49,604 nt of DNA from Haloferax massiliensis. Its GTDB lineage: Archaea; Halobacteriota; Halobacteria; Halobacteriales; Haloferacaceae. The notes beneath the pieces are model-generated. The model made no database searches. It was not told the origin of the DNA and saw nothing but the letters and a program-made list of their open reading frames with translations. Position numbers and translations under genes: made by a program. The DNA lies in NCBI RefSeq assembly GCF_001368915.1, contig NZ_CSTE01000002.1, positions 699,881-749,484 on the forward strand, in the 5' to 3' direction. Shown here piece after piece: positions 3 to 20,153 of this stretch; within the stretch, counting starts at the first letter, position 1, and every line of letters starts with the position of its first letter.

Positions 3-1226
3 GGCGTCGACGCCCCGTCGCTCGGCGGGATGGCGGGCCTCTTCGGCGGCGACACCAGCGGGTCGCCGGCGAGCATCAGCCCGCCGTTCCCCTTTGCCTC
101 GCTCGTCCTCGCGTTCGCCTTCCTCGTGCCGATGAACTTCGTGATTCAGGCGTACGGGTCGAGCATTCTCAACGAGCGCATCAACCGCCGCGGCGAACTG
201 CTCCTCGTCGCGCCCATCTCGCCGGGCGACATCGTCGCCGGCAAGACGCTCCCGTACCTGCTCGGCACGGTCGCTATCACCGTCGCCATCGCGGCGGCGG
301 TCGGCGGGGGCGTCGTCTCGGTGGCCGCGGTCGTTCCCGTCGGCCTGCTGTTCCTCGCGTCGACGTTCGTCGGCGCGATGTTCGCCCGCTCGTTCAAGGA
401 ACTCACGTTCGTCACGGTGACGGTGTCGGTGTTCCTGACGACGTACACGTTCGTCCCGGCCATCTTCACGAACATCACGCCCATCGCCCTCATCTCGCCG
501 CTGACGCTCGTCGTCCGCGACCTCGCGGGCGAGTCGATTCCGCTCGGCGAGTTCCTGTTTTCGGTCGGGCCGATTCTCCTCGCCGCGGGCGTGCTGTTCC
601 TCCTCGGCGTCGGCGTCTACCGCGAAGAGGACATGTTCACCCAGCGACCGGTCCCGCTGAAGTTCCTCGACGCGCTCGACAGCCGCATCTCGCGGGCGCG
701 CTCCGTGGCGACCCTGTCGGCGCTGTCGATTCCGTTCGTCTTCATCGCCGAACTGCTGGCCATCGCGGTGCTTTTCGTCCTCCCCATCGACCTGACCGTC
801 CCGCTGGTGCTGGTCGCGGTCGCGGTCGTCGAGGAGTTAGCCAAGAGCCTCCACGTCCTCGCCGCCTTCGAGAAGGCGCGGTTTTCCCGGACGCTCCGGT
901 CGTCGCTCGTCCTCGGCGGGCTCTCGGGGCTCGGCTTCTTCGTCGGCGAGAAGTTCACCGCCATCGCCCAACTCGCCGGGTTGCAGTCTCTCACCCTCGG
1001 ACAGACCGCCTTCGCGCCCTCCGGCGTCGGCATCGCCGACGGGACCGGCGTGAGCGCCCTCGTCGTCCTCGGCCTGTTCCTCGCGCCGCTGGCGCTCCAC
1101 GCGGTGACCGCCAGCGTGACCGCCCTCGGGGCGAGTCGCGGGCGCTCGGCCTACGGCGTCGCGCTCGTGGGTGCAATCGCCATTCACCTCGTCTACAACC
1201 TCCAGGTGGTGAGCGCCCTTGGGTAA
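3..1226 (+). CDS. ABC-2 type permease with C-terminal PrsW-like protease domain (5' end outside window)
   Basis: Membrane subunit of an ABC exporter fused to a putative intramembrane metalloprotease. The reading frame is open to the left edge (GVDAPSLGG precedes the first ATG at 30), so the true start lies outside. Residues about 1-200 (counted from that ATG) hold several hydrophobic segments and the ABC-2 style cytoplasmic stretch ERINRRGELLLVAPISPGD. After a charged linker (YREEDMFTQRPVPLK) a second hydrophobic block has the PrsW-type signatures VEELAKS near residue 268, a histidine in APLALHAVTAS near 357 and AIHLVYN near 385. EExxK plus two helix-borne histidines is the expected PrsW/CPBP-like metal site; activity is inferred. 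It overlaps the next permease by 8 bp, so the two are probably co-translated, and an ATPase gene is expected upstream of the window. Confidence 0.8.
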   Translation, partial: GVDAPSLGGMAGLFGGDTSGSPASISPPFPFASLVLAFAFLVPMNFVIQAYGSSILNERINRRGELLLVAPISPGDIVAGKTLPYLLGTVAITVAIAAAVGGGVVSVAAVVPVGLLFLASTFVGAMFARSFKELTFVTVTVSVFLTTYTFVPAIFTNITPIALISPLTLVVRDLAGESIPLGEFLFSVGPILLAAGVLFLLGVGVYREEDMFTQRPVPLKFLDALDSRISRARSVATLSALSIPFVFIAELLAIAVLFVLPIDLTVPLVLVAVAVVEELAKSLHVLAAFEKARFSRTLRSSLVLGGLSGLGFFVGEKFTAIAQLAGLQSLTLGQTAFAPSGVGIADGTGVSALVVLGLFLAPLALHAVTASVTALGASRGRSAYGVALVGAIAIHLVYNLQVVSALG

Positions 1227-2277
1227 CCCGCGATTCGCCATCGCCCGCCGCGAACTCGGCAGTCTCCGCAAGGAAAAGACCATCGTGCTGGCGCTGGCCA
1301 TCCAGCTGTTCGTCGCGGCGTTCTCGTCGTTCCTCGTCGTCGGGCTCGTCTCGCTGTACGACCCCGGTTCGGCGAGCTATCAGGTGGACGTGGCCGTCAC
1401 GGGCGACGAGGAGGCGGTCGAGGACCTGCTGCGCGCCGTCGGAACCGAAGACGGACTCAGCGGGCGGCCGTACGCCTCCTCGTCGGACGCGCTGACGGCG
1501 TTCCAACAGCGGGAGGTCGATGCCGTCTTAGAGGCGTCCACGGGCGAGGACGGCAGGATACGAGTCGCGGCGGTCGCGCCCGACTCGGGGGTGGAGACGA
1601 CGGCGGTCGTCGTCCGCCTCCGCGACGCGCTCCGCGAACTGGAGCGCACCGAGCGCGCGGAGCGGAGCGCGTACCTCGCCACGGACCCGCTTTCCCTCCC
1701 GCCGGCGGCGGAGTCGAGCCCGTACTTCGGCTTCACCTACACGGTGCTCGTTCCGCTGCTGCTGTTCCTGCCCGTGTTCATCTCCGGGTCGCTGGTGGTC
1801 GATTCGCTCGCCGAGGAGGTCGCCCGCGGGACGCTCGAACTCCTGCGGGTCGCGCCCGTGAGCTTCGCAGCCGTCGTGGACGGAAAGCTCCTCGCGGCCG
1901 GCGGGCTGGCCCCGGTGCAGGCTGTCGCGTGGATGCTCCTCCTCCAACTGAACGGGTCGACTATCGAGAGCGTCCCGTGGCTGTTCGGCATGGTCGCCGG
2001 GCTCTCGGCGGTCGTCGTCACCCTCGGCGCGGCGGTGGCGATTACCTCGCCCGACCGCCGGGTGGCACAGCTCCTGTACTCCATCGGCGTGCTCCTCGTC
2101 TTCGCGGGCACGTCGCTTCTGCCGCTGAACCCCGCGAACACGGCCGCGCGACTGGCGCTCGGAACCGCGGGCGTCGGCGCGAAGGCCGCCGTCGCGGGGC
2201 TGGTCTTCGTCGGCGTCGTCGCGCTCGTGGGCCTCCGAATCCTCGTCGACCGCGTGGACCCGAACGAACTCGGCTGA
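1219..2277 (+). CDS. ABC-2 type transporter permease
   Basis: Second permease of the same ABC exporter (352 residues). It uses a TTG start that overlaps the end of the previous gene by 8 bp. Layout: one N-terminal membrane segment (about residues 15-40), a roughly 130-residue extracytoplasmic acidic domain (YDPGSASYQVDVAVTGDEE onward), then five to six membrane segments to the C-terminus. The stretch VDSLAEEVARGTLELLRVAP is the typical ABC-2/NatB-like cytoplasmic loop. The substrate cannot be read from sequence. The alternation of GC-rich codons matches the chromosome, with no sign of transfer. Confidence 0.82.
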   Translation: MGNPRFAIARRELGSLRKEKTIVLALAIQLFVAAFSSFLVVGLVSLYDPGSASYQVDVAVTGDEEAVEDLLRAVGTEDGLSGRPYASSSDALTAFQQREVDAVLEASTGEDGRIRVAAVAPDSGVETTAVVVRLRDALRELERTERAERSAYLATDPLSLPPAAESSPYFGFTYTVLVPLLLFLPVFISGSLVVDSLAEEVARGTLELLRVAPVSFAAVVDGKLLAAGGLAPVQAVAWMLLLQLNGSTIESVPWLFGMVAGLSAVVVTLGAAVAITSPDRRVAQLLYSIGVLLVFAGTSLLPLNPANTAARLALGTAGVGAKAAVAGLVFVGVVALVGLRILVDRVDPNELG

Positions 2278-2369
2278 GGCTGTCGTCCCCGTTTTCCGCC
2301 CCCCGCGCGTTCGGGCTCCGCCGACACCGCACCGGAAGTCGTACAAGCCCCGAGTCCGAGAGGCGACAC

Positions 2370-2714
2370 ATGCCACTCGGAGGAACCGCGAAGAAGCTCC
2401 AGAAGGTCGCAGAGATGGCCGAAGACGTGTACAAGAAGCTCAACGAACTGCGCGAGCAGGTCGTCGAGGTCCGCGAGACGGTCAACGAGACGAAGTCGCG
2501 CGTCGACCGGCTCGAAGCCGAGAACGCCGAACAGCGGGCGATTCTCGAAGCCATCGCGGAGGAACAGGGCGTCGACCTCGACGCCGCGATCGCGCAGGCG
2601 CACATCTCCGAGGCCGAGGAGGACGCGGCCGGAGACGAGACTGAGACCGTCGCCGACGCCGCGTCTGAGTCCGACGCCGCCACGTCGAGCGACGCCGCCA
2701 CCGACGAGGCGTAA
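2370..2714 (+). CDS. Small acidic coiled-coil protein (DUF5798-like)
   Basis: A 114-residue protein that starts MPLGGTAKKLQKVAEMAEDV. The first 70 residues are a heptad-rich amphipathic helix (VYKKLNELREQVVEVRETV, RVDRLEAENAEQRAILEAI), followed by GVDLDAAIAQAHISEAEED and a very acidic Ala/Asp/Glu/Ser/Thr tail. I chose the ATG at 2370 because the frame upstream of it reads as arginine-rich antisense-like noise. It resembles a haloarchaeal family I recall as DUF5798, with no known function; the helix suggests oligomerisation. It stands alone between convergent or unrelated neighbours. Confidence 0.8.
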   Translation: MPLGGTAKKLQKVAEMAEDVYKKLNELREQVVEVRETVNETKSRVDRLEAENAEQRAILEAIAEEQGVDLDAAIAQAHISEAEEDAAGDETETVADAASESDAATSSDAATDEA

Positions 2715-2914
2715 CCCGACCCAACACCCGTCTCCGTTCCCGTCTGTATCTTCGTCGCTCTCCGCGCTCTTTCGGTCTCGCACTACCGCGCACAGCCTCG
2801 GCCTCCCGAGAGGACCGTCTTCGGCCGGCACGAAACACCCCGACGGGGGCCCGGCCCTCGACGGGCGACAACGGGATGAAAACGTTCAGGGTACGGGGCA
2901 ACTTTTGCCCAGGT

Positions 2915-3895
2915 ATGACCACGCACCGCGAACCCCTCGACTCGGTGCTCGACGCCGTCGGCGAGACGCCGCTCGTCAGAGTCCACGCGTCGCCCGACGA
3001 GGTGCCCGTCTACGCGAAGCTCGAATCGTTCAACCCGGGCGCGAGCGTCAAGGACCGCATCGGGAAGTACATGCTCGAACGGATGCTCGAATCGGGCGAA
3101 CTCCCCGAGGGCGGAACCATCGTCGAGCCGACCGCCGGCAACACCGGCATCGGCTTCGCCGTCGCGGCCGGGCAGCTCGGCATCCGCGCGGTGTTCGTCG
3201 TCCCCGAGCGGTTCAGCGTGGAAAAGCAGACGCTCATGCGCGCGCTCGGAGCCGACGTGGTGAACACGCCCACCGCCGACGGGATGGGCGGCGCTATCGA
3301 CCGCGCGCACAAGCTCGCCGACGAACTCGACGACGCCGTCGTCCCCCAGCAGTTCTCCAACCCGCTCAACCCCGAGGCGCACTACGAGACGACCGCGCCC
3401 GAGATTTACGACGCGCTCGACGGCGAGGTCGGCGCGCTCGTCGCCGGCTGCGGCACCGCGGGCACGCTCATGGGAGTGGCGCGCTACGGCCGCGAGCGCA
3501 ACGAAGACACGTTCGTCACCGCGGTCGAACCCGAGGGGTCGCTCTACGCCCGACTCCACGGCCGCGACGTGGCGGAGGCGTCGTACAAGACCGAGGGCAT
3601 CGGCACGCACGACCCCGCGACCAACGAGCTGTTCGACCCCGAACTGGTGGACGAAATCGTCCAAATCGGCGACCGCGACACCCACGCCGAGATGCAGCGC
3701 CTCGCCGCGGAGGAGGGTCACCTCGTCGCGTCGAGCGCCGCCGCCAACTCGCTGGCCGCAATCGACGTGGCCGAGCGCGCCGCCGCCGGCGACATCGACC
3801 TCCCGCACGACGCCGTCGTCACGGTCTTTCCCGACTCCTCGGAGCGATACCTCTCGAAGGACGTCTACGGCGACTTCGAGTCGTGGGAAGGCTAG
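2915..3895 (+). CDS. cysK: Cysteine synthase family protein (PLP-dependent)
   Basis: Makes cysteine from O-acetyl- or O-phosphoserine plus sulfide, or a related beta-replacement, using pyridoxal phosphate in the cytoplasm. 326 residues, normal for CysK/CysM. The PLP lysine sits in NPGASVKDRIGKYML (about residue 46); EPTAGNTGIG (about 70-80) binds substrate carboxylate; AGCGTAGTLMG (about 178) is the phosphate-binding loop; FPDSSERYLSK is the conserved C-terminal motif. Start: the ATG at 2915 gives the usual N-terminus (TTHREPLDSVLDAVGETPLV); an in-frame ATG at 2876 would add 13 unlikely residues. Cystathionine beta-synthase remains possible because the family is hard to split by eye. Confidence 0.87.
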   Translation: MTTHREPLDSVLDAVGETPLVRVHASPDEVPVYAKLESFNPGASVKDRIGKYMLERMLESGELPEGGTIVEPTAGNTGIGFAVAAGQLGIRAVFVVPERFSVEKQTLMRALGADVVNTPTADGMGGAIDRAHKLADELDDAVVPQQFSNPLNPEAHYETTAPEIYDALDGEVGALVAGCGTAGTLMGVARYGRERNEDTFVTAVEPEGSLYARLHGRDVAEASYKTEGIGTHDPATNELFDPELVDEIVQIGDRDTHAEMQRLAAEEGHLVASSAAANSLAAIDVAERAAAGDIDLPHDAVVTVFPDSSERYLSKDVYGDFESWEG

Positions 3896-13674: not shown

Positions 13675-14648
13675 CCGACGAACGACTGCTGACGGCGGCG
13701 AAGCTGTACGAACAGGTGCGCGGGCGCATCGACGGCGACCACAGACTACTCGACCACGCGGGACTGCCGGTCTCGAAGGGCGACCACGCGAACCTGTCGT
13801 TCCTGAACTCGCTCGACCTCACCGACGACGACGAACTGGCCGACTCGTTCGCAGAAACCTCGCTGGGCAGGCTCGTCGATTCGTCGCTTCGGACCCAAGC
13901 CGCGACCCGCGCGGTGCAGTCGTCGCACGCGACCGCGCTTTCGTACCTCGTCGGCGTGACCCAGCAGGACCTCGACGCCAGTTCGCTGACGCTCCCGCTT
14001 CGGCTCGTCGACGAGCTGGAGAACGGTGGCGGTCTCACGACGATCACCGGCGCGGGGAACCCGAACACGGGCAAGACGAACACGATGTTCCTGCTGAACG
14101 GCGACCTCGCGCGGGCGCACTTCGGCGATGACCTGCTGGTCATCTCGAACGTGGGGACGTGGGACGGCGCGGACATCGTGGTGCGGTCGATGTACGACCT
14201 CATGGACGTACTGCTGACCCACCGCGAACGGCCGAAGACCGTCACTATCGACGAAGGCTCGACGCACTTCGACGCCCGGACGTTCAGCCGCGAAGTGGCG
14301 TCCCAGTGGACGCCCGCGATTAAGCGGTTTTCGAAGCTCGGCGTCGAGTCCGTCGGCGTGGTGAGCCACACGGGGAAGGACGTGCATCCCGAACAGAAAC
14401 GGCTCTCGACGCTGTCGTTCTACAAAGAGGCGCAGGACGAAGTGACGTTCTACCGCGACTGGGACGCCGATTCAGACTCGCCCGATGGTGAGCTGTTCGG
14501 CGGCTCGCTCGTGAACCTCGAACCTACGCTGGAAAAGTACGACCCGGACGACGCCGCGCCGTGGGCGTGGAATCTGCCGAGTGATCTGTTTCAGGAGCAG
14601 TTCGAGGACTGGAGCGAGTTTCATGAGATTCTTCGATGCAGTAACTAG
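13671..14648 (+). CDS. VP8-like P-loop ATPase of the element
   Basis: 325-residue NTPase. Walker A GAGNPNTGKTNTMF near residues 126-139; Walker B-like KTVTIDEGSTHFDARTF near 189. The HerA/FtsK-like flavour and its place at the end of the membrane-protein block match the putative NTPase VP8 of pleolipoviruses, thought to act in assembly or genome handling. GTG start with 4-bp overlap to the previous gene. A decayed copy of its last 75 codons lies at 17565-17789, proof of a second related element next door. Confidence 0.72.
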   Translation: MTDERLLTAAKLYEQVRGRIDGDHRLLDHAGLPVSKGDHANLSFLNSLDLTDDDELADSFAETSLGRLVDSSLRTQAATRAVQSSHATALSYLVGVTQQDLDASSLTLPLRLVDELENGGGLTTITGAGNPNTGKTNTMFLLNGDLARAHFGDDLLVISNVGTWDGADIVVRSMYDLMDVLLTHRERPKTVTIDEGSTHFDARTFSREVASQWTPAIKRFSKLGVESVGVVSHTGKDVHPEQKRLSTLSFYKEAQDEVTFYRDWDADSDSPDGELFGGSLVNLEPTLEKYDPDDAAPWAWNLPSDLFQEQFEDWSEFHEILRCSN

Positions 14649-15307: not shown

Positions 15308-15328
15308 GTAAGGGTGGTGGGTGCTTGC

Positions 15329-15607
15329 TCACTCGCTGTTCTCTAACTCGGCGGCGTCGATCTCCCCGGCGAGATAGGCGCGACCTCGTTCGGAAAGTCG
15401 GTAAATCGCTCGCTCCTCGTCGTGGTACTCAACCAGCTCGTGGTCAAGGAGTGTCCCAAGGTGTTCGCGGACGGTTGTCCGTGCATAATCGGTGTTCTCT
15501 GCAATCAGGGCTGGCGTAAGAACGAGTTCGTCGTTCCCCTCGTTCTGCAGTCGCTCCAGTATCGACCTGTCCGCAGGCGTCATCCAGTCGGCAAGAGGAA
15601 CGCGCAT
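15329..15607 (-). CDS. Winged-helix regulator (phiH1-repressor-like)
   Basis: 92-residue DNA-binding protein. WMTPADRSILERLQNEG is followed by a helix-turn-helix (LTPALIAENTDYARTTVREH), then LGTLLDHELVEYHDE and the wing YRLSERGRAYLAG. The pattern is that of haloarchaeal phage phiH1-type repressors. It is transcribed against the particle genes and is divergent from the integrase side, the usual place for a lysogeny or copy-control switch. A 12-bp inverted repeat sits upstream at 15689-15718. The end of a homologous gene survives at 20074-20104. Confidence 0.75.
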   Translation of the reverse strand: MRVPLADWMTPADRSILERLQNEGNDELVLTPALIAENTDYARTTVREHLGTLLDHELVEYHDEERAIYRLSERGRAYLAGEIDAAELENSE

Positions 15608-16279
15608 GGATTACAACTACATTGATATAGTAAATCTATTTTCATCACTACGAACTTCGTATTAATTTGTATCTAAAACCTCCAGAGTTGTGGGTAAGTG
15701 TTAAGTCACTCACCCACAGTTCTGTTGGTATCGGAAGCTACACGCGATGTTGACTGTTGTTCAGTCGGCGTCAGAAAGCGGACCCAGCGCTGGCACGCTG
15801 GCCCGCGGTGGCTCCCGTAACCGAGGTACGGAAGCATGTTTGCCTACACGACTCGGGCTATTGAAGCCCCACGACGAACGGCTGTTGATAGACTGACAGA
15901 AAGCGGCTTCACTTTCGCTCAAACGTACACTTTCACTCCGGGGCCATGGCTCAGTACTTTAATTAGCCCCCTCGAATGGATTACCCGGCTGACGGTCCCT
16001 TTCGAGGATGCTCACCCTACCAAAGCCAGCACCCTCGACCCGGACCGCGGCCTCACAATGGAAGCCATGAATCAGTTATCGCACCGCGGTTGTAAGCGTA
16101 GCGAATGGACCGGAAGTGAACCCGATTCGGGGGTGATTCGATGAGTAAGCTCACCCTACCAAAGCCAGCACCCTCGACCCGGACCGCGGCCTCACAATGG
16201 AAGCCATGAATCAGTTATCGCACCGCGGTTGTAAGCGTAGCGAATGGACCGGAAGTGAACCCGATTCGGGGGTGATTCG
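15608..16279. other. Control region between regulator and integrase
   Basis: About 670 bp without a convincing gene. It holds an AT-rich promoter zone for the regulator (TATA-like TTTACTATATC on the minus strand near 15628-15638), a long inverted repeat, a GC-rich segment with CAGCGCTGGCACGCTGGC near 15785, and most of a 139-bp tandem duplication. An open frame at 15836-16144 (MFAYTTRAIEAPRRTAVDRL onward) runs into the duplicated DNA and shows neither a family signature nor host-like codon use; I do not call it a gene. The region is a candidate replication origin and operator zone. Confidence 0.5.
15689..15718. promoter_or_regulatory. 12-bp inverted repeat upstream of the regulator
   Basis: TGTGGGTAAGTG (15689-15700) and CACTCACCCACA (15707-15718) match at 11 of 12 positions around the 6-nt loop TTAAGT. 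It lies 82 bp upstream of the winged-helix gene. It may be the operator of that regulator or a hairpin for the HUH Rep. Confidence 0.55.
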
Positions 16280-16287
16280 ATGAGTAA
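16010..16287 (+). repeat. 139-bp exact tandem duplication before the integrase
   Basis: 16010-16148 is repeated exactly as 16149-16287, followed by GCTC again, so the junction has 4 bp of microhomology. The unit includes the first bases of the integrase gene (ATGAGTAAGCTC), so a false copy of the integrase start stands at 16141. Confidence 0.95.
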
Positions 16288-17326
16288 GCTCGAATCGCTC
16301 GAACCTGCTCGCGCGGTCCGAATGTACCTGGAGGCCCGCCAGGACGAACTCGCGGACTGGACGTTGAAGTCCCACAAGTACCGACTCCGTGCGTTCGTCG
16401 AGTGGTGCGAAGAAGCGGGCGTCGACGACCTGACCGAGCTCGACGGCCGGGACCTCTACGAGTTCCGCGTCTGGAGGCGCGAAGGAAACTTCGGTGCGGA
16501 GGACGGCGAGACGCCGGAGGAGATCGCGCCGGTCACGCTCAAATCACAGCTCACTACGCTTCGGGCGTTCCTCCGGTTCGCGGCGAACATCCACGCGGTT
16601 CCCGAGGACTTCTACGAGCGGGTGCCGCTACCGAAGCTGTCCGGGACGGACGACGTGAGTGATTCGACGCTCGAACCGGACCGGGCAACTGACATCCTCG
16701 AATATCTCCACCGCTACCACTACGCTTCCCGGCGGCACGTCGAATTCGCGTTGCTGTGGGAGACGGGCGCGCGGATGGGCGCGATTCGTGGCCTCGACCT
16801 GCGTGACCTCGACCTCGACGGCCGGACGCCGGTCGTCCGGTACAAGCACCGGCCCGACCAGGGCACGCCCATCAAGAACGGCGAGAAAGGAGAGCGGTTC
16901 AACTCGGTGTCTGACCGGGTGGGCACGATGTTACAGGCGTACATCGACGGCCCGCGCGTCGACGCGACCGACGAGTTCGGTCGGAAGCCGCTACTGACGA
17001 CTTCTCACGGGCGCGTCTCGGCGAGTACGATTCGGCAGGACGTGTACGTGGTCACTCGCCCGTGCTGGCTGAATCAGGGTTGCCCGCACAATCGAGACAT
17101 CGAGACGTGCGAGGCGGTGGAGCTGAATCACGTCAGTACGTGTCCGTCTTCTCGGTCTCCCCACGACGTTCGGAAGGGCGTGGTTACGCTCTATCGGCGG
17201 GAGGAAGTGCCGCGTCGGGTGGTGTCTGACCGCCTCGACGCGAGCGACTTGGTGCTCGATAAGCACTATGACCGCCGTGGAGAGCGTGAGCGGGCCGAAC
17301 AGCGGCGGAATCACCTCCCGTGGTAG
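16280..17326 (+). CDS. Tyrosine recombinase / integrase
   Basis: 348 residues; catalyses insertion and excision at the tRNA-Arg site. N-terminal SAM-like core-binding domain (ADWTLKSHKYRLRAFVEWCE, DLTELDGRDLYEFRVWRRE). Catalytic residues in order: Arg in ETGARMGAIRGL near residue 168, a Lys-rich beta-hairpin PIKNGEKGERF, His-x-x-Arg in SPHDVRKGVVTLY near 295-298, DRLDAS near 315, and the nucleophile Tyr in LDKHYDRRGE near 331. Four cysteines near 268-291 in the segment CWLNQGCPHNRDIETCE and VSTCPSS may bind zinc. The gene ends 62 bp before the right attachment site. Start ATG 16280; its 5' region is duplicated just upstream. Confidence 0.86.
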   Translation: MSKLESLEPARAVRMYLEARQDELADWTLKSHKYRLRAFVEWCEEAGVDDLTELDGRDLYEFRVWRREGNFGAEDGETPEEIAPVTLKSQLTTLRAFLRFAANIHAVPEDFYERVPLPKLSGTDDVSDSTLEPDRATDILEYLHRYHYASRRHVEFALLWETGARMGAIRGLDLRDLDLDGRTPVVRYKHRPDQGTPIKNGEKGERFNSVSDRVGTMLQAYIDGPRVDATDEFGRKPLLTTSHGRVSASTIRQDVYVVTRPCWLNQGCPHNRDIETCEAVELNHVSTCPSSRSPHDVRKGVVTLYRREEVPRRVVSDRLDASDLVLDKHYDRRGERERAEQRRNHLPW

Positions 17327-17492: not shown

Positions 17493-17564
17493 CATGAACT
17501 CCGGTTTTTCGTGGCGCGATTGAAACGCCGAGAGACAGATCCCGACGCTGTCTCCGAGGACACA

Positions 17565-17789
17565 CAGGACGAAGTGACGTTCCACCGCGACTGGGACGCC
17601 GATTCAGACTCGCTCGATGAGGAGTTGTTCGGCGGTTCGCTCGCGAACCTCGAACCGACGCTGGAGGCGTACGACCCGGACGACGCCGCGCCGTGGGCGT
17701 AGAACCTGCTGAGTGATCTGTTTTAGGAGCAGTTCGAGAGTTGGGAAGAGTTCCACGAGTTGCGTTTGTCTCAGAGTTCTACGGAGTAG
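17565..17789 (+). pseudogene. Fragment of a VP8-like ATPase gene with two stop codons
   Basis: Homologous to the last 75 codons of the intact ATPase (14433-14648): QDEVTFHRDWDADSDS, ELFGGSLANLEPTLEAYD and PDDAAPWA match nearly residue for residue. TAG at 17700-17702 replaces a TGG codon and TAG at 17724-17726 replaces CAG; the frame then continues EQFESWEEFHELR to a TAG at 17787-17789. The upstream 250 codons are gone. Confidence 0.88.
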
Positions 17790-17855: not shown

Positions 17856-18596
17856 ATGTTCGAAGATCTCGATTCGCGGGTTTCAGATGTTGTCCAACAC
17901 TACTATATGACGCTATCTGGACAAGCTGAAGAACACGAGAAGTCTGATAACGTTGCTCATGGGCGACGCCCAGAGGTTCTTGGTGGCCAGCAAATGAATG
18001 GGTTCGCGGGACTGGTTGAGGAGCTACTAGTCGAGGCTGGCGTTCCCCGCGATGCTGTAAAGCACGACTATCATGCAACACTACCAGGATATTACCGACA
18101 CGAGAAGGAGTGGGATACTGCAGTTGTCTATAACGGCAACCTTCTGGCAGCCATTGAGTACAAGTCACAAGGTAGCTCGATTGGCAACAATCTGAATAAC
18201 CGTGCTGAAGAGGTCATTGGGAATAATACCGACATACTCAAAGCGTACGAAGAGGGTCTATTTGAACCATCACCCGCCCCGTGGATTGGTTACCTTATGT
18301 TATTTGTAGACGATGACGAGTCTAGAAAAACACGGTCTCTCCGAGAACCAAATTTCCCTGCAGATGACGAGTTCCAAAATGCAGGATATATTGACAGGAT
18401 GGAACTGCTTTGTCTTCGGATGCTACGTCAAAGGCTCGTTGATGGTGCGACATTCCTCTTGAGTAACGAAGACATAGGGATAAATGGCGAATACCGAGAA
18501 CCGAACGAAGAACTCGAATTCGAACGTTTTGCTCGATCACTTGTCTCTCATGTACAGGCCCATATCGACCACGAGCAAGATACATTGTTCGACTGA
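17856..18596 (+). CDS. PaeR7I/XhoI-family type II restriction endonuclease
   Basis: 246 residues. Predicted to cut CTCGAG when unmethylated. It matches the PaeR7I family along its length: GGQQMNGFAGLVEELLVEAG, LPGYYRHEKEWDTAVVYNGN, LLAAIEYKSQGSSIGNNLNN, RAEEVIGNNTDILKAYEEG, PAPWIGYLMLF, YIDRMELLCLRMLRQRLVDG and EPNEELEFERFARSL. The catalytic PD-(D/E)xK-like residues are Asp in EWDTAVV and Glu-x-Lys in IEYKSQ (near 88 and 101). AT-rich compared with the host, so imported. TATA-like TACATATAC lies about 35 bp upstream. Its methyltransferase partner follows after 53 bp on the same strand. Specificity is inferred from the family. Confidence 0.85.
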   Translation: MFEDLDSRVSDVVQHYYMTLSGQAEEHEKSDNVAHGRRPEVLGGQQMNGFAGLVEELLVEAGVPRDAVKHDYHATLPGYYRHEKEWDTAVVYNGNLLAAIEYKSQGSSIGNNLNNRAEEVIGNNTDILKAYEEGLFEPSPAPWIGYLMLFVDDDESRKTRSLREPNFPADDEFQNAGYIDRMELLCLRMLRQRLVDGATFLLSNEDIGINGEYREPNEELEFERFARSLVSHVQAHIDHEQDTLFD

Positions 18597-18602
18597 GATC
18601 TA

Positions 18603-18617
18603 CTCGAGTTTTATATA
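18603..18617 (+). promoter_or_regulatory. CTCGAG site abutting the TATA box of the methyltransferase gene
   Basis: CTCGAG (18603-18608) ends one base before TTTATATA (18610-18617), which is 33 bp before the methyltransferase ATG. The predicted recognition site therefore occupies the BRE position of the only promoter in the gap between the two R-M genes. The methylation state could tune TFB binding. Confidence 0.6.
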
Positions 18618-18649
18618 GTTTTAACTTCGATTATCTAGTAACTCTTGGT

Positions 18650-20014
18650 ATGAAAGGCCACGTTCCTACGCCACATGACCTGGCTGAAAAAATAGTCCAA
18701 CGTTTATTTCGAGATAGACAGCCTACGAAGAGTGACCGGATACTCTATCCTGGGTGTGGGACAGGACCTTTCGCTGCAGTTGTTGAGCAGGTTTGTGAAT
18801 CAGAGGGTTGGGGCCTTCCAGACGGGCTTGCTATTGAGACGAATCCAGAGCACTTGGATGCTGCACGAAATCGCGGCCTTGAGCACGTTGAGTTTGTCGA
18901 ACAAGATTATCTTGGACCTCAGATGCTTGAGTCGGAGACGTTTGATTTCATTGTAGGCAATCCACCGTATGTTCCCATTGAAGGTCTCTCGGGTGAAGAA
19001 AAGAACCGCTACAAAGAGGAGTTCTCGACTGCAGTCGGTCGATTCGACCTCTATCTATTATTCTACGAACGCTCTTTGGAACTACTATCTTCCGGTGGTG
19101 TTCTCTCTTTTATCACACCAGAAAAGTTCGAGTACGTCGATGCTGCTGAACCACTTAGACGGCTGCTCACCTCTGATAACTTCCACGTCGAAGATGTCGT
19201 TCATATCGACGAAGATTCGTTCTCGGGGTTGGTCACGTTCCCCTGTATTACGACAATTCGGCGTACGGAAACTGGACCCACCCATGTGAAACTAAGGGAT
19301 GGATCTACTCATACAACCGCGCTCCCAGAAGATGGTGAGAGTTGGGCCGCTTCAGTAAGAGGTGCTGACCTCGAGGATCTGGAAACTGGTACAACCCTCG
19401 GTGATGTCACGGTTCGTATCTCACCCGGAATGGCGACCGGTGCTGATTCTGTATTCGTCGCTGACCGTCAGGACGTTCCTGCACAACTCGTTCCAGATTG
19501 GATTTATCCTACTGTCTCTGGCCGTCAATTGAGATCAAATGACGGGCCGTACACGGATTCAGTGTTCATCTGTCCCTATCAAGAAGACGGGACGCTGCCA
19601 GACGAAGACGAACTTGGTGCCTTTGGTGACTGGGCCGAGCTTCACCGAGAACGCCTCGAAGACCGTTCTTGTGTGAAAAAGACTGGAAAGAGATGGTATG
19701 CGTGGCATGAAAATCCACCGATGCAGGACCTGTTACAGCCAAAGATAGTATTCAAGGACATCGCTAAAGAACCACGCTTCTGGGCGGAGAAAAAGGGAAC
19801 TGTTGTCCCAAAACACAGTGTGTACTATCTAATCCCGAAGGAAGACGTACCCTTCGACGAGCTGCTTGAATATCTGAATAGTCCCAAGGCACGGCTGTGG
19901 ATGGAATCTAACTGTCAGAAGGCAGCAAATGGGTTCTACCGCCTACAAAGCCGTGTTCTCCGTGACCTACCTGTACCAGCAGAGTGGTCAGAGACGTACC
20001 AAGCAACGTTGTGA
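18650..20014 (+). CDS. N6-adenine DNA methyltransferase, PaeR7I-type partner
   Basis: 454 residues; protects the predicted CTCGAG sites by methylating adenine. AdoMet-binding motif I is DRILYPGCGTGPFAAVV near residues 28-44, the acidic loop AIETNPEHLDAAR follows, and the catalytic motif IV is FDFIVGNPPYVPIEG near 98-112. The C-terminal half (VSGRQLRSND, KPKIVFKDI-type block KIVFKDIAKEPRFWAEKKG, KAANGFYRLQSRVL) is the TaqI/Eco57I-like target recognition domain. Lower GC than the host, like the endonuclease. It also contains a second CTCGAG at 19370-19375. Starts at the ATG at 18650 after its own promoter. Confidence 0.85.
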   Translation: MKGHVPTPHDLAEKIVQRLFRDRQPTKSDRILYPGCGTGPFAAVVEQVCESEGWGLPDGLAIETNPEHLDAARNRGLEHVEFVEQDYLGPQMLESETFDFIVGNPPYVPIEGLSGEEKNRYKEEFSTAVGRFDLYLLFYERSLELLSSGGVLSFITPEKFEYVDAAEPLRRLLTSDNFHVEDVVHIDEDSFSGLVTFPCITTIRRTETGPTHVKLRDGSTHTTALPEDGESWAASVRGADLEDLETGTTLGDVTVRISPGMATGADSVFVADRQDVPAQLVPDWIYPTVSGRQLRSNDGPYTDSVFICPYQEDGTLPDEDELGAFGDWAELHRERLEDRSCVKKTGKRWYAWHENPPMQDLLQPKIVFKDIAKEPRFWAEKKGTVVPKHSVYYLIPKEDVPFDELLEYLNSPKARLWMESNCQKAANGFYRLQSRVLRDLPVPAEWSETYQATL

Positions 20015-20055: not shown

Positions 20056-20104
20056 CCTTTACGGGGCGCTCGCTCACTCGCTGTTCTCTACTTCGCCGTT
20101 GACG
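20056..20104 (-). pseudogene. 3' end of the convergent winged-helix gene of the relict element
   Basis: GCTCACTCGCTGTTCTCT here (20072-20089) equals the end of the intact regulator gene (15327-15344) and encodes ENSE-stop on the minus strand; the block CCCTTTACGGGG before it is shared as well. The rest of the gene is deleted; similarity fades by about 20104. It defines the right limit of the relict that I can see. Confidence 0.7.
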
Positions 20105-20153
20105 AGCTCGCTACTGCGACAAAAAGTCAGTAGCTGTAACTCCGCGAGAACGG

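What the first reader, a model, noticed from the sequence alone, without database searches (positions are those of the whole stretch)
18603..18617. Predicted R-M target CTCGAG sits against the TATA box of its own methyltransferase
CTCGAG (18603-18608) ends one base before TTTATATA (18610-18617), the BRE position. Autoregulation by methylation of a target site in the R-M intergenic region is known for bacterial systems such as CfrBI and SsoII; here it would act on archaeal TFB/TBP binding, which I have not seen described.
Basis: partly seen in the sequence, partly recalled or inferred. Interest (0 to 1): 0.72.

Follow-up and report, generated by a model that had tools for sequence, protein, structure and literature searches.

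The report
Methylase's own target in its promoter
In salt-loving archaea, the promoter of an XhoI-type DNA-methylase gene carries the methylase's own predicted target sequence at a fixed, conserved place beside the TATA box, as if the enzyme shuts off its own gene once the DNA is marked; bacterial enzymes are known to do this, but I found no archaeal report.

Summary
It is not chance. The upstream gene is a PF04555/XhoI-family nuclease and the downstream gene a TaqI/PaeR7I-like N6-adenine methylase. PaeR7I recognises CTCGAG. The host genome holds 84 CTCGAG against 941 for the same letters reversed, yet one lies in the 53-bp R-M gap. Of 31 non-identical haloarchaeal homologues of the methylase, 17 have CTCGAG 47-53 nt before the start codon (about 0.07 expected from flanking density). 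A CTCGAG+TATA pattern matched 8 places in 391 genomes, all in front of this methylase (reversed control 0). Four loci carry two CTCGAG exactly 26 bp apart, bracketing the TATA box. The site stays with the methylase while the nuclease gene is same-strand, divergent, convergent, replaced or absent. Thirteen homologues (the 12 placed on the tree form one group) lack it, so it is not obligatory. The working TATA is more likely TTTTAA (18619-18624), which puts CTCGAG just upstream of the BRE rather than on it. Best explanation: methylase feedback on its own promoter, probably negative, through methylation or substrate binding. This is known in bacteria (CfrBI, AhdI, LlaDII); I found no archaeal precedent. 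Methylation, TSS and repression are unmeasured.

The parts
17856..18596 (+). Type II restriction endonuclease, XhoI/PaeR7I family, 246 aa
   Evidence: PF04555 E=2e-51, cut-off passed by 150 bits; PADLOC REase_II; 34% identity to PaeR7I R over 234 aa with the WD..E.K core kept
18603..18608 (.). CTCGAG, predicted target of this R-M pair and proposed promoter element; the adenines that M.PaeR7I would methylate are at 18607 (+ strand) and opposite 18604 (- strand)
   Evidence: conserved at the same place in 17 of 31 homologous loci
18610..18617 (+).
   Evidence: Columns +8..+14 of the promoter alignment; degenerate in the two-site promoters and absent in loci without CTCGAG
18619..18624 (+). TTTTAA, more likely the TATA box (-31..-26 from the ATG, leaderless spacing)
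   Evidence: TTTAA conserved in 15-17 of 17 promoters per column and kept as TTTAAA/TTnAAGTA in several homologues without CTCGAG; AT peak at -31..-27 upstream of 104 predicted genes
18650..20014 (+). N6-adenine DNA methyltransferase, TaqI/PaeR7I-like, 454 aa, with NPPY motif and TaqI-like C-terminal specificity domain
   Evidence: PF07669, PF12950, PF02384; TaqI and BseCI methylases in PDB; 27% identity to PaeR7I M over most of its length
19370..19375 (.). second CTCGAG of the window, inside the methylase gene (+720); coding, no regulatory claim

Best explanation
CTCGAG 18603-18608 is a cis-regulatory element of the methylase promoter by which the methylase senses its own activity. When the locus enters an unmodified cell, or the site is hemimethylated after replication, the promoter is free and the methylase is made. 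Once the methylase has methylated CTCGAG (inferred: N6-adenine at 18607 and opposite 18604), or sits on it as a substrate, recruitment of TFB/TBP/RNA polymerase to the adjoining BRE/TATA falls and its own synthesis is damped. Shown here: gene identities, predicted specificity, position, conservation, two-site bracketing of the TATA box, and exclusivity to this gene. Inferred: the actual specificity, TSS, methylation of the site, and that the effect is negative.
For: R is XhoI/PaeR7I family and M is PaeR7I-like. PaeR7I recognises CTCGAG and its M makes 6mA at the fifth base (PMC3031569). CTCGAG is depleted here (84 vs 941 for GAGCTC, ratio 0.09; congeners without R 0.40-4.19), so its presence in a 53-bp gap is unexpected. 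17 of 31 non-identical M loci have it at -53..-47, against about 0.07 expected. The conserved block has sharp edges: CTCGAG plus AT-rich/TATA, with flanks near background. CTCGAGNNNTAWATANNTTTAA gave 8 hits in 391 genomes, reversed control 0, all 8 in front of an M homologue. Four loci have CTCGAG-N20-CTCGAG bracketing the TATA box and one has only the downstream copy. The site follows M, not R: R may be upstream, divergent (DL31), convergent (L088), a different gene, or absent. Bacterial precedents: CfrBI, AhdI, LlaDII (PMC12707154).
Against: Thirteen M loci, most of those closest to this M (66-73% identity) and with an XhoI-family R, have no CTCGAG in the promoter, so a working system does not need it. 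No transcription, methylome or binding data were available. The sign of the effect cannot be read from sequence. Genomes with related M but no XhoI-family R show no CTCGAG depletion, so for them the specificity is inferred only from homology and the promoter site itself.
Confidence: 0.72

Rival explanations
1. The methylase represses by occupying the unmodified or hemimethylated CTCGAG as a bound protein (steric repressor at the edge of the TFB/TBP footprint), not through the methyl mark itself.
For: Two sites 26 bp apart on either side of the TATA box look like paired operators; no extra regulatory domain is seen in M, so its catalytic DNA-binding surface would have to do it.
Against: A methylase normally leaves the fully methylated product, so occupancy would fall exactly when the enzyme is abundant. 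No binding data.
Confidence: 0.2
2. Positive feedback: methylation of CTCGAG strengthens the promoter, locking the methylase on once established.
For: The site adjoins the BRE, so a methyl group could in principle help as well as hinder; all anatomy results fit either sign.
Against: The M-gene feedback cases summarised in the reviews read here are repressive; a promoter that needs methylation to fire would endanger the cell on first entry.
Confidence: 0.1
3. CTCGAG here is the binding site of an unrelated haloarchaeal transcription factor and only by coincidence equals the R-M target.
For: A palindromic hexamer beside a BRE is a plausible activator site; flanking bases are unconserved, as for a short site.
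Against: The pattern is found in front of this methylase only, 8 of 8 in 391 genomes; its equality with the predicted target of the very gene it precedes would be unexplained.
Confidence: 0.07
4. CTCGAG marks a recombination seam: the nuclease cut there and alternative upstream genes were swapped, leaving the site in front of M.
For: Different upstream genes abut the site; in L025, L026 and L030 it supplies the last codons of a different gene.
Against: Does not explain the fixed spacing to TATA, nor the second copy downstream of TATA, nor why no seam is seen at the other end of M.
Confidence: 0.04
5. Chance occurrence.
For: The hexamer is short.
Against: 17 of 31 loci against about 0.07 expected, P about 1e-37 if loci were independent, and depletion of the hexamer in this genome.
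Confidence: 0.01

Closest known systems
CfrBI R-M system (Citrobacter)
   Same: A target site of the R-M system lies in the methylase promoter; its methylation lowers transcription of the methylase (PMC12707154).
   Different: Bacterial sigma-type RNA polymerase; R and M divergent with overlapping promoters, methylation switches to R; the methylase is from another family (my recollection: N4-cytosine, CCWWGG). Here R and M are tandem and the promoter is TBP/TFB type.
AhdI and LlaDII R-M systems
   Same: Promoter methylation affects only the methylase's own gene (PMC12707154); the closest functional parallel.
   Different: Bacterial. AhdI also has a controller protein; none was seen beside R or M here. 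The site-TATA-site bracket found in four haloarchaeal loci has no counterpart in the passages read.
PaeR7I R-M system (Pseudomonas plasmids)
   Same: Homologous R (34%) and M (27%); target CTCGAG with 6mA at the fifth base.
   Different: M precedes R; its two CTCGAG lie at +93 and +100 inside the annotated M gene, not in the 60 bases before its annotated start. I found no report of methylation feedback for it.
SsoII / Ecl18kI / EcoRII regulatory methylases
   Same: A methylase represses its own gene.
   Different: They use an N-terminal helix-turn-helix bound to an operator; no such domain was found in this M.

Membership tests
XhoI/PaeR7I-type IIP R-M system | PF04555 restriction endonuclease | tested here: met
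   E=2e-51 over residues 28-213
XhoI/PaeR7I-type IIP R-M system | adjacent gamma-type N6-adenine methylase homologous to M.PaeR7I | tested here: met
   27% identity over most of the protein, NPPY kept
XhoI/PaeR7I-type IIP R-M system | cleaves and methylates CTCGAG | tested here: inconclusive
   Indirect only: homology plus 10-fold CTCGAG deficit in this genome
Methylase genes with promoter-methylation feedback (CfrBI/AhdI/LlaDII kind) | cognate recognition site within the methylase promoter | tested here: met
   CTCGAG 10 bp above TTTTAA, conserved position in 17 of 31 loci
Methylase genes with promoter-methylation feedback (CfrBI/AhdI/LlaDII kind) | methylation of that site lowers methylase transcription | not testable with these tools
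   Needs methylome, TSS and reporter data
SsoII-type regulatory methylases | N-terminal helix-turn-helix regulatory domain | tested here: not met
   Conserved MKGHVPTP motif begins at residue 1; no HTH match in Pfam
C-protein controlled R-M systems | small HTH controller gene beside R and M | tested here: not met
   No ORF of 60 aa or more lies between R and M; the 78-aa ORF just upstream of R has no Pfam match, and the HTH ORF at 15329-15607 lies 2.2 kb away beyond the integrase

The most novel reading that the evidence does not exclude
A methylation-gated archaeal core promoter: N6-methyladenine in CTCGAG directly upstream of the BRE (or on both sides of the TATA box) controls TFB/TBP recruitment, so the methylase reads its own mark. 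It would be the first such epigenetic feedback switch on the TBP/TFB machinery, conserved across many haloarchaeal genera and carried as a module with the methylase irrespective of its partner (XhoI-type nuclease, an unrelated upstream gene, or a DruE-like helicase context).
Probability: 0.5. Interest if true: 0.78.

Novelty: new variant of a known kind. Interest (0 to 1): 0.62.

Why it matters
How archaeal R-M systems time methylase against nuclease is, as far as my searches show, unstudied. This gives a concrete conserved element with natural variants (one site, two sites, downstream only, none) that makes methylation control of a TBP/TFB promoter directly testable in Haloferax or Halobacterium with a small reporter set. 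It would also be a rare case where DNA methylation has a named promoter target in Archaea, and the natural two-site promoters offer a ready-made methylation-responsive archaeal switch.

Tried and rejected
Chance: rejected. General haloarchaeal avoidance of CTCGAG as the cause of the deficit: rejected; congeners and other genera without R do not show it, and some Natrialbaceae-like genomes have over 10,000 copies. Deficit as a property of all M carriers: rejected; it goes with XhoI-family R (Mann-Whitney P=0.015 against other genomes, 0.002 against M without this R) and is modest in several. Viral copies: the M profile found none in viral contigs; seven pattern hits there are chance matches, in AT-rich contigs for six of the seven, with no M beside them. 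Bacterial PaeR7I-like loci as further cases: inconsistent (sites at +93/+100, -295, none, and -36 in a CTCGAG-rich locus), so I make no claim. An R-linked rather than M-linked element: rejected; where an XhoI-family R pairs with a different, PF01555-type methylase (L035), no CTCGAG lies at the equivalent position. No archaeal precedent surfaced in the paper searches, but the library is open-access only and the CfrBI, LlaDII and AhdI originals were not held.

Full report
OBSERVATION. The coordinates are right. 18597-18649, the 53-bp gap between the two genes, contains CTCGAG (18603-18608), T, TTTATATA (18610-18617), G, TTTTAA (18619-18624), and then the methylase ATG at 18650. CTCGAG occurs twice in the 49.6-kb window against 38 expected from shuffles. 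The whole genome (4.0 Mb) holds 84 copies against 941 of the reversed sequence GAGCTC. Fourteen congeners without this nuclease have ratios of 0.40-4.19 against 0.09 here. So the hexamer is strongly avoided in this genome, and one of the few copies sits in the methylase promoter.

GENES. The upstream gene is a PF04555/XhoI-family nuclease, 34% identical to PaeR7I R over 234 residues. The downstream gene is a TaqI/Eco57I-type N6-adenine methylase, 27% identical to PaeR7I M over most of its length. PaeR7I recognises CTCGAG and its methylase makes 6mA at the fifth base (PMC3031569). Specificity for CTCGAG is therefore well predicted but not measured. Both genes are GC-poor (48% and 50% against 66% for the window), as expected of recent acquisitions.

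CONSERVATION. I collected methylase homologues by protein similarity, without regard to the promoter, giving 31 non-identical loci. Seventeen have CTCGAG starting 47-53 nt before the ATG, against 0.067 expected from the CTCGAG density in their own flanks. Nominal P is about 1e-37, an overstatement because the loci are related. Aligned on the site, conservation is confined to CTCGAG, a WTAWATA stretch and a TTTAA box at fixed spacing; bases on either side are near background (CTCGAG itself is fixed there by the anchoring). In the reverse direction, the pattern CTCGAGNNNTAWATANNTTTAA matched 8 places in 391 haloarchaeal genomes (reversed control 0), and all 8 precede a homologue of this methylase, 47-100% identical.

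TWO-SITE PROMOTERS. Four loci (L066, L067, L071, L072) have two CTCGAG exactly 26 bp apart, at -47/-49 and -21/-23, with the TATA box between them, and L073 has only the downstream copy. L066 and L067 are close relatives; L071 and L072 are on other branches, so the arrangement arose or was lost more than once. This is hard to reconcile with anything but a promoter-control element.

THE SITE TRAVELS WITH M. Where CTCGAG is present, the XhoI-family nuclease may be upstream on the same strand (window, L027, L084), divergent (plasmid of halophilic archaeon DL31), convergent downstream (L088), replaced by an unrelated 270-290-aa upstream gene without Pfam match (L025, L026, L030, L065-L067, L070), or absent (L029, L069, L071-L073). 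Thirteen loci lack the site; the 12 of them long enough for the tree group with one change, while the window and the truncated L027 keep it. The simplest reading is an ancestral site lost in one subgroup, but branch support there is weak and the tree is effectively unrooted, so a gain is not excluded.

WHICH TATA BOX. I favour TTTTAA (-31..-26). The AT peak upstream of 104 predicted haloarchaeal genes is at -31..-27. In Haloferax volcanii 72% of protein-coding transcripts are leaderless and leaders just above 5 nt are rare (PMC4983044). TTTAA is kept in several homologues that lost both CTCGAG and the upstream box (L017, L024, L059), and in the two-site promoters it is the better preserved of the two. 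On this reading CTCGAG ends 10 bp above the TATA box, just upstream of the BRE and at the edge of the expected TFB/TBP footprint. If the other box is used, the methylated adenine at 18607 falls within the BRE. A mapped TSS would decide.

MECHANISM. Most likely the methylase damps its own promoter by methylating CTCGAG (about 0.7 for feedback by the methylase; about 0.5 for the methyl mark itself being the signal). Bacterial parallels are CfrBI, AhdI and LlaDII (PMC12707154; PMC3874152). Nothing in the sequence fixes the sign of the effect.

LIMITS. No expression, TSS or methylation data were available. 'No archaeal precedent' means none found in an open-access library. The relative loci whose M lacks an XhoI-family R show no CTCGAG depletion, so their specificity rests on homology and on the promoter site itself.

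Noticed in passing
L029:5001-11302; also L079, L083, L089, L081: A branch of the methylase family (MKGFVKTP type in L029, L079, L083) sits beside an AlbA/Schlafen-domain gene; in L029 the convergent 1239-aa helicase matches Druantia DruE profiles (PADLOC E about 1e-67), and similar long convergent genes lie in the others. Their methylase promoters also carry CTCGAG. Possibly an archaeal Druantia-like defence system with its own methylase.
   Followed up: partly
L025, L026, L030, L064-L067, L070, upstream of M: A 270-290-aa gene family with a GEPDIVIPE...EIRVIQ core (PD-(D/E)XK-like by eye), no Pfam, NCBIfam or PADLOC match, directly upstream of the methylase where the XhoI-family nuclease is missing; possibly an undescribed CTCGAG nuclease or partner.
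   Followed up: partly
Genomes G004, G137, G390: CTCGAG is enormously over-represented (11,293, 15,064 and 18,276 copies against 516-3,253 for GAGCTC), the opposite of avoidance.
   Followed up: no
Promoters of L018-L024, L055, L061: Homologues without CTCGAG share another box, about GTTTACRTA-NN-TTnAAGTA, at the same place; perhaps a different control element.
   Followed up: no
Upstream of R in L020, L022, L023 (about 25-50 nt before the start): A recurrent GTCGACAGRCATACAGTGTYTGCATCGAC-like sequence with inverted-repeat character around the presumed promoter of the nuclease gene.
   Followed up: no
window 16004-16281: A 139-bp near-perfect tandem duplication (99%) just before the integrase-like gene at 16280-17326.
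   Followed up: no
window 14419-14627 and 17551-17759; 15319-15364 and 20064-20109: Direct repeats (86% and 80%) around the integrase and R-M genes, suggesting an inserted or rearranged island.
   Followed up: no
Own genome C1:510780-518321, C2:380773-383160, C2:441141-446665: The remaining CTCGAG sites cluster in a few short stretches, probably recent imports not yet purged of the site.
   Followed up: no
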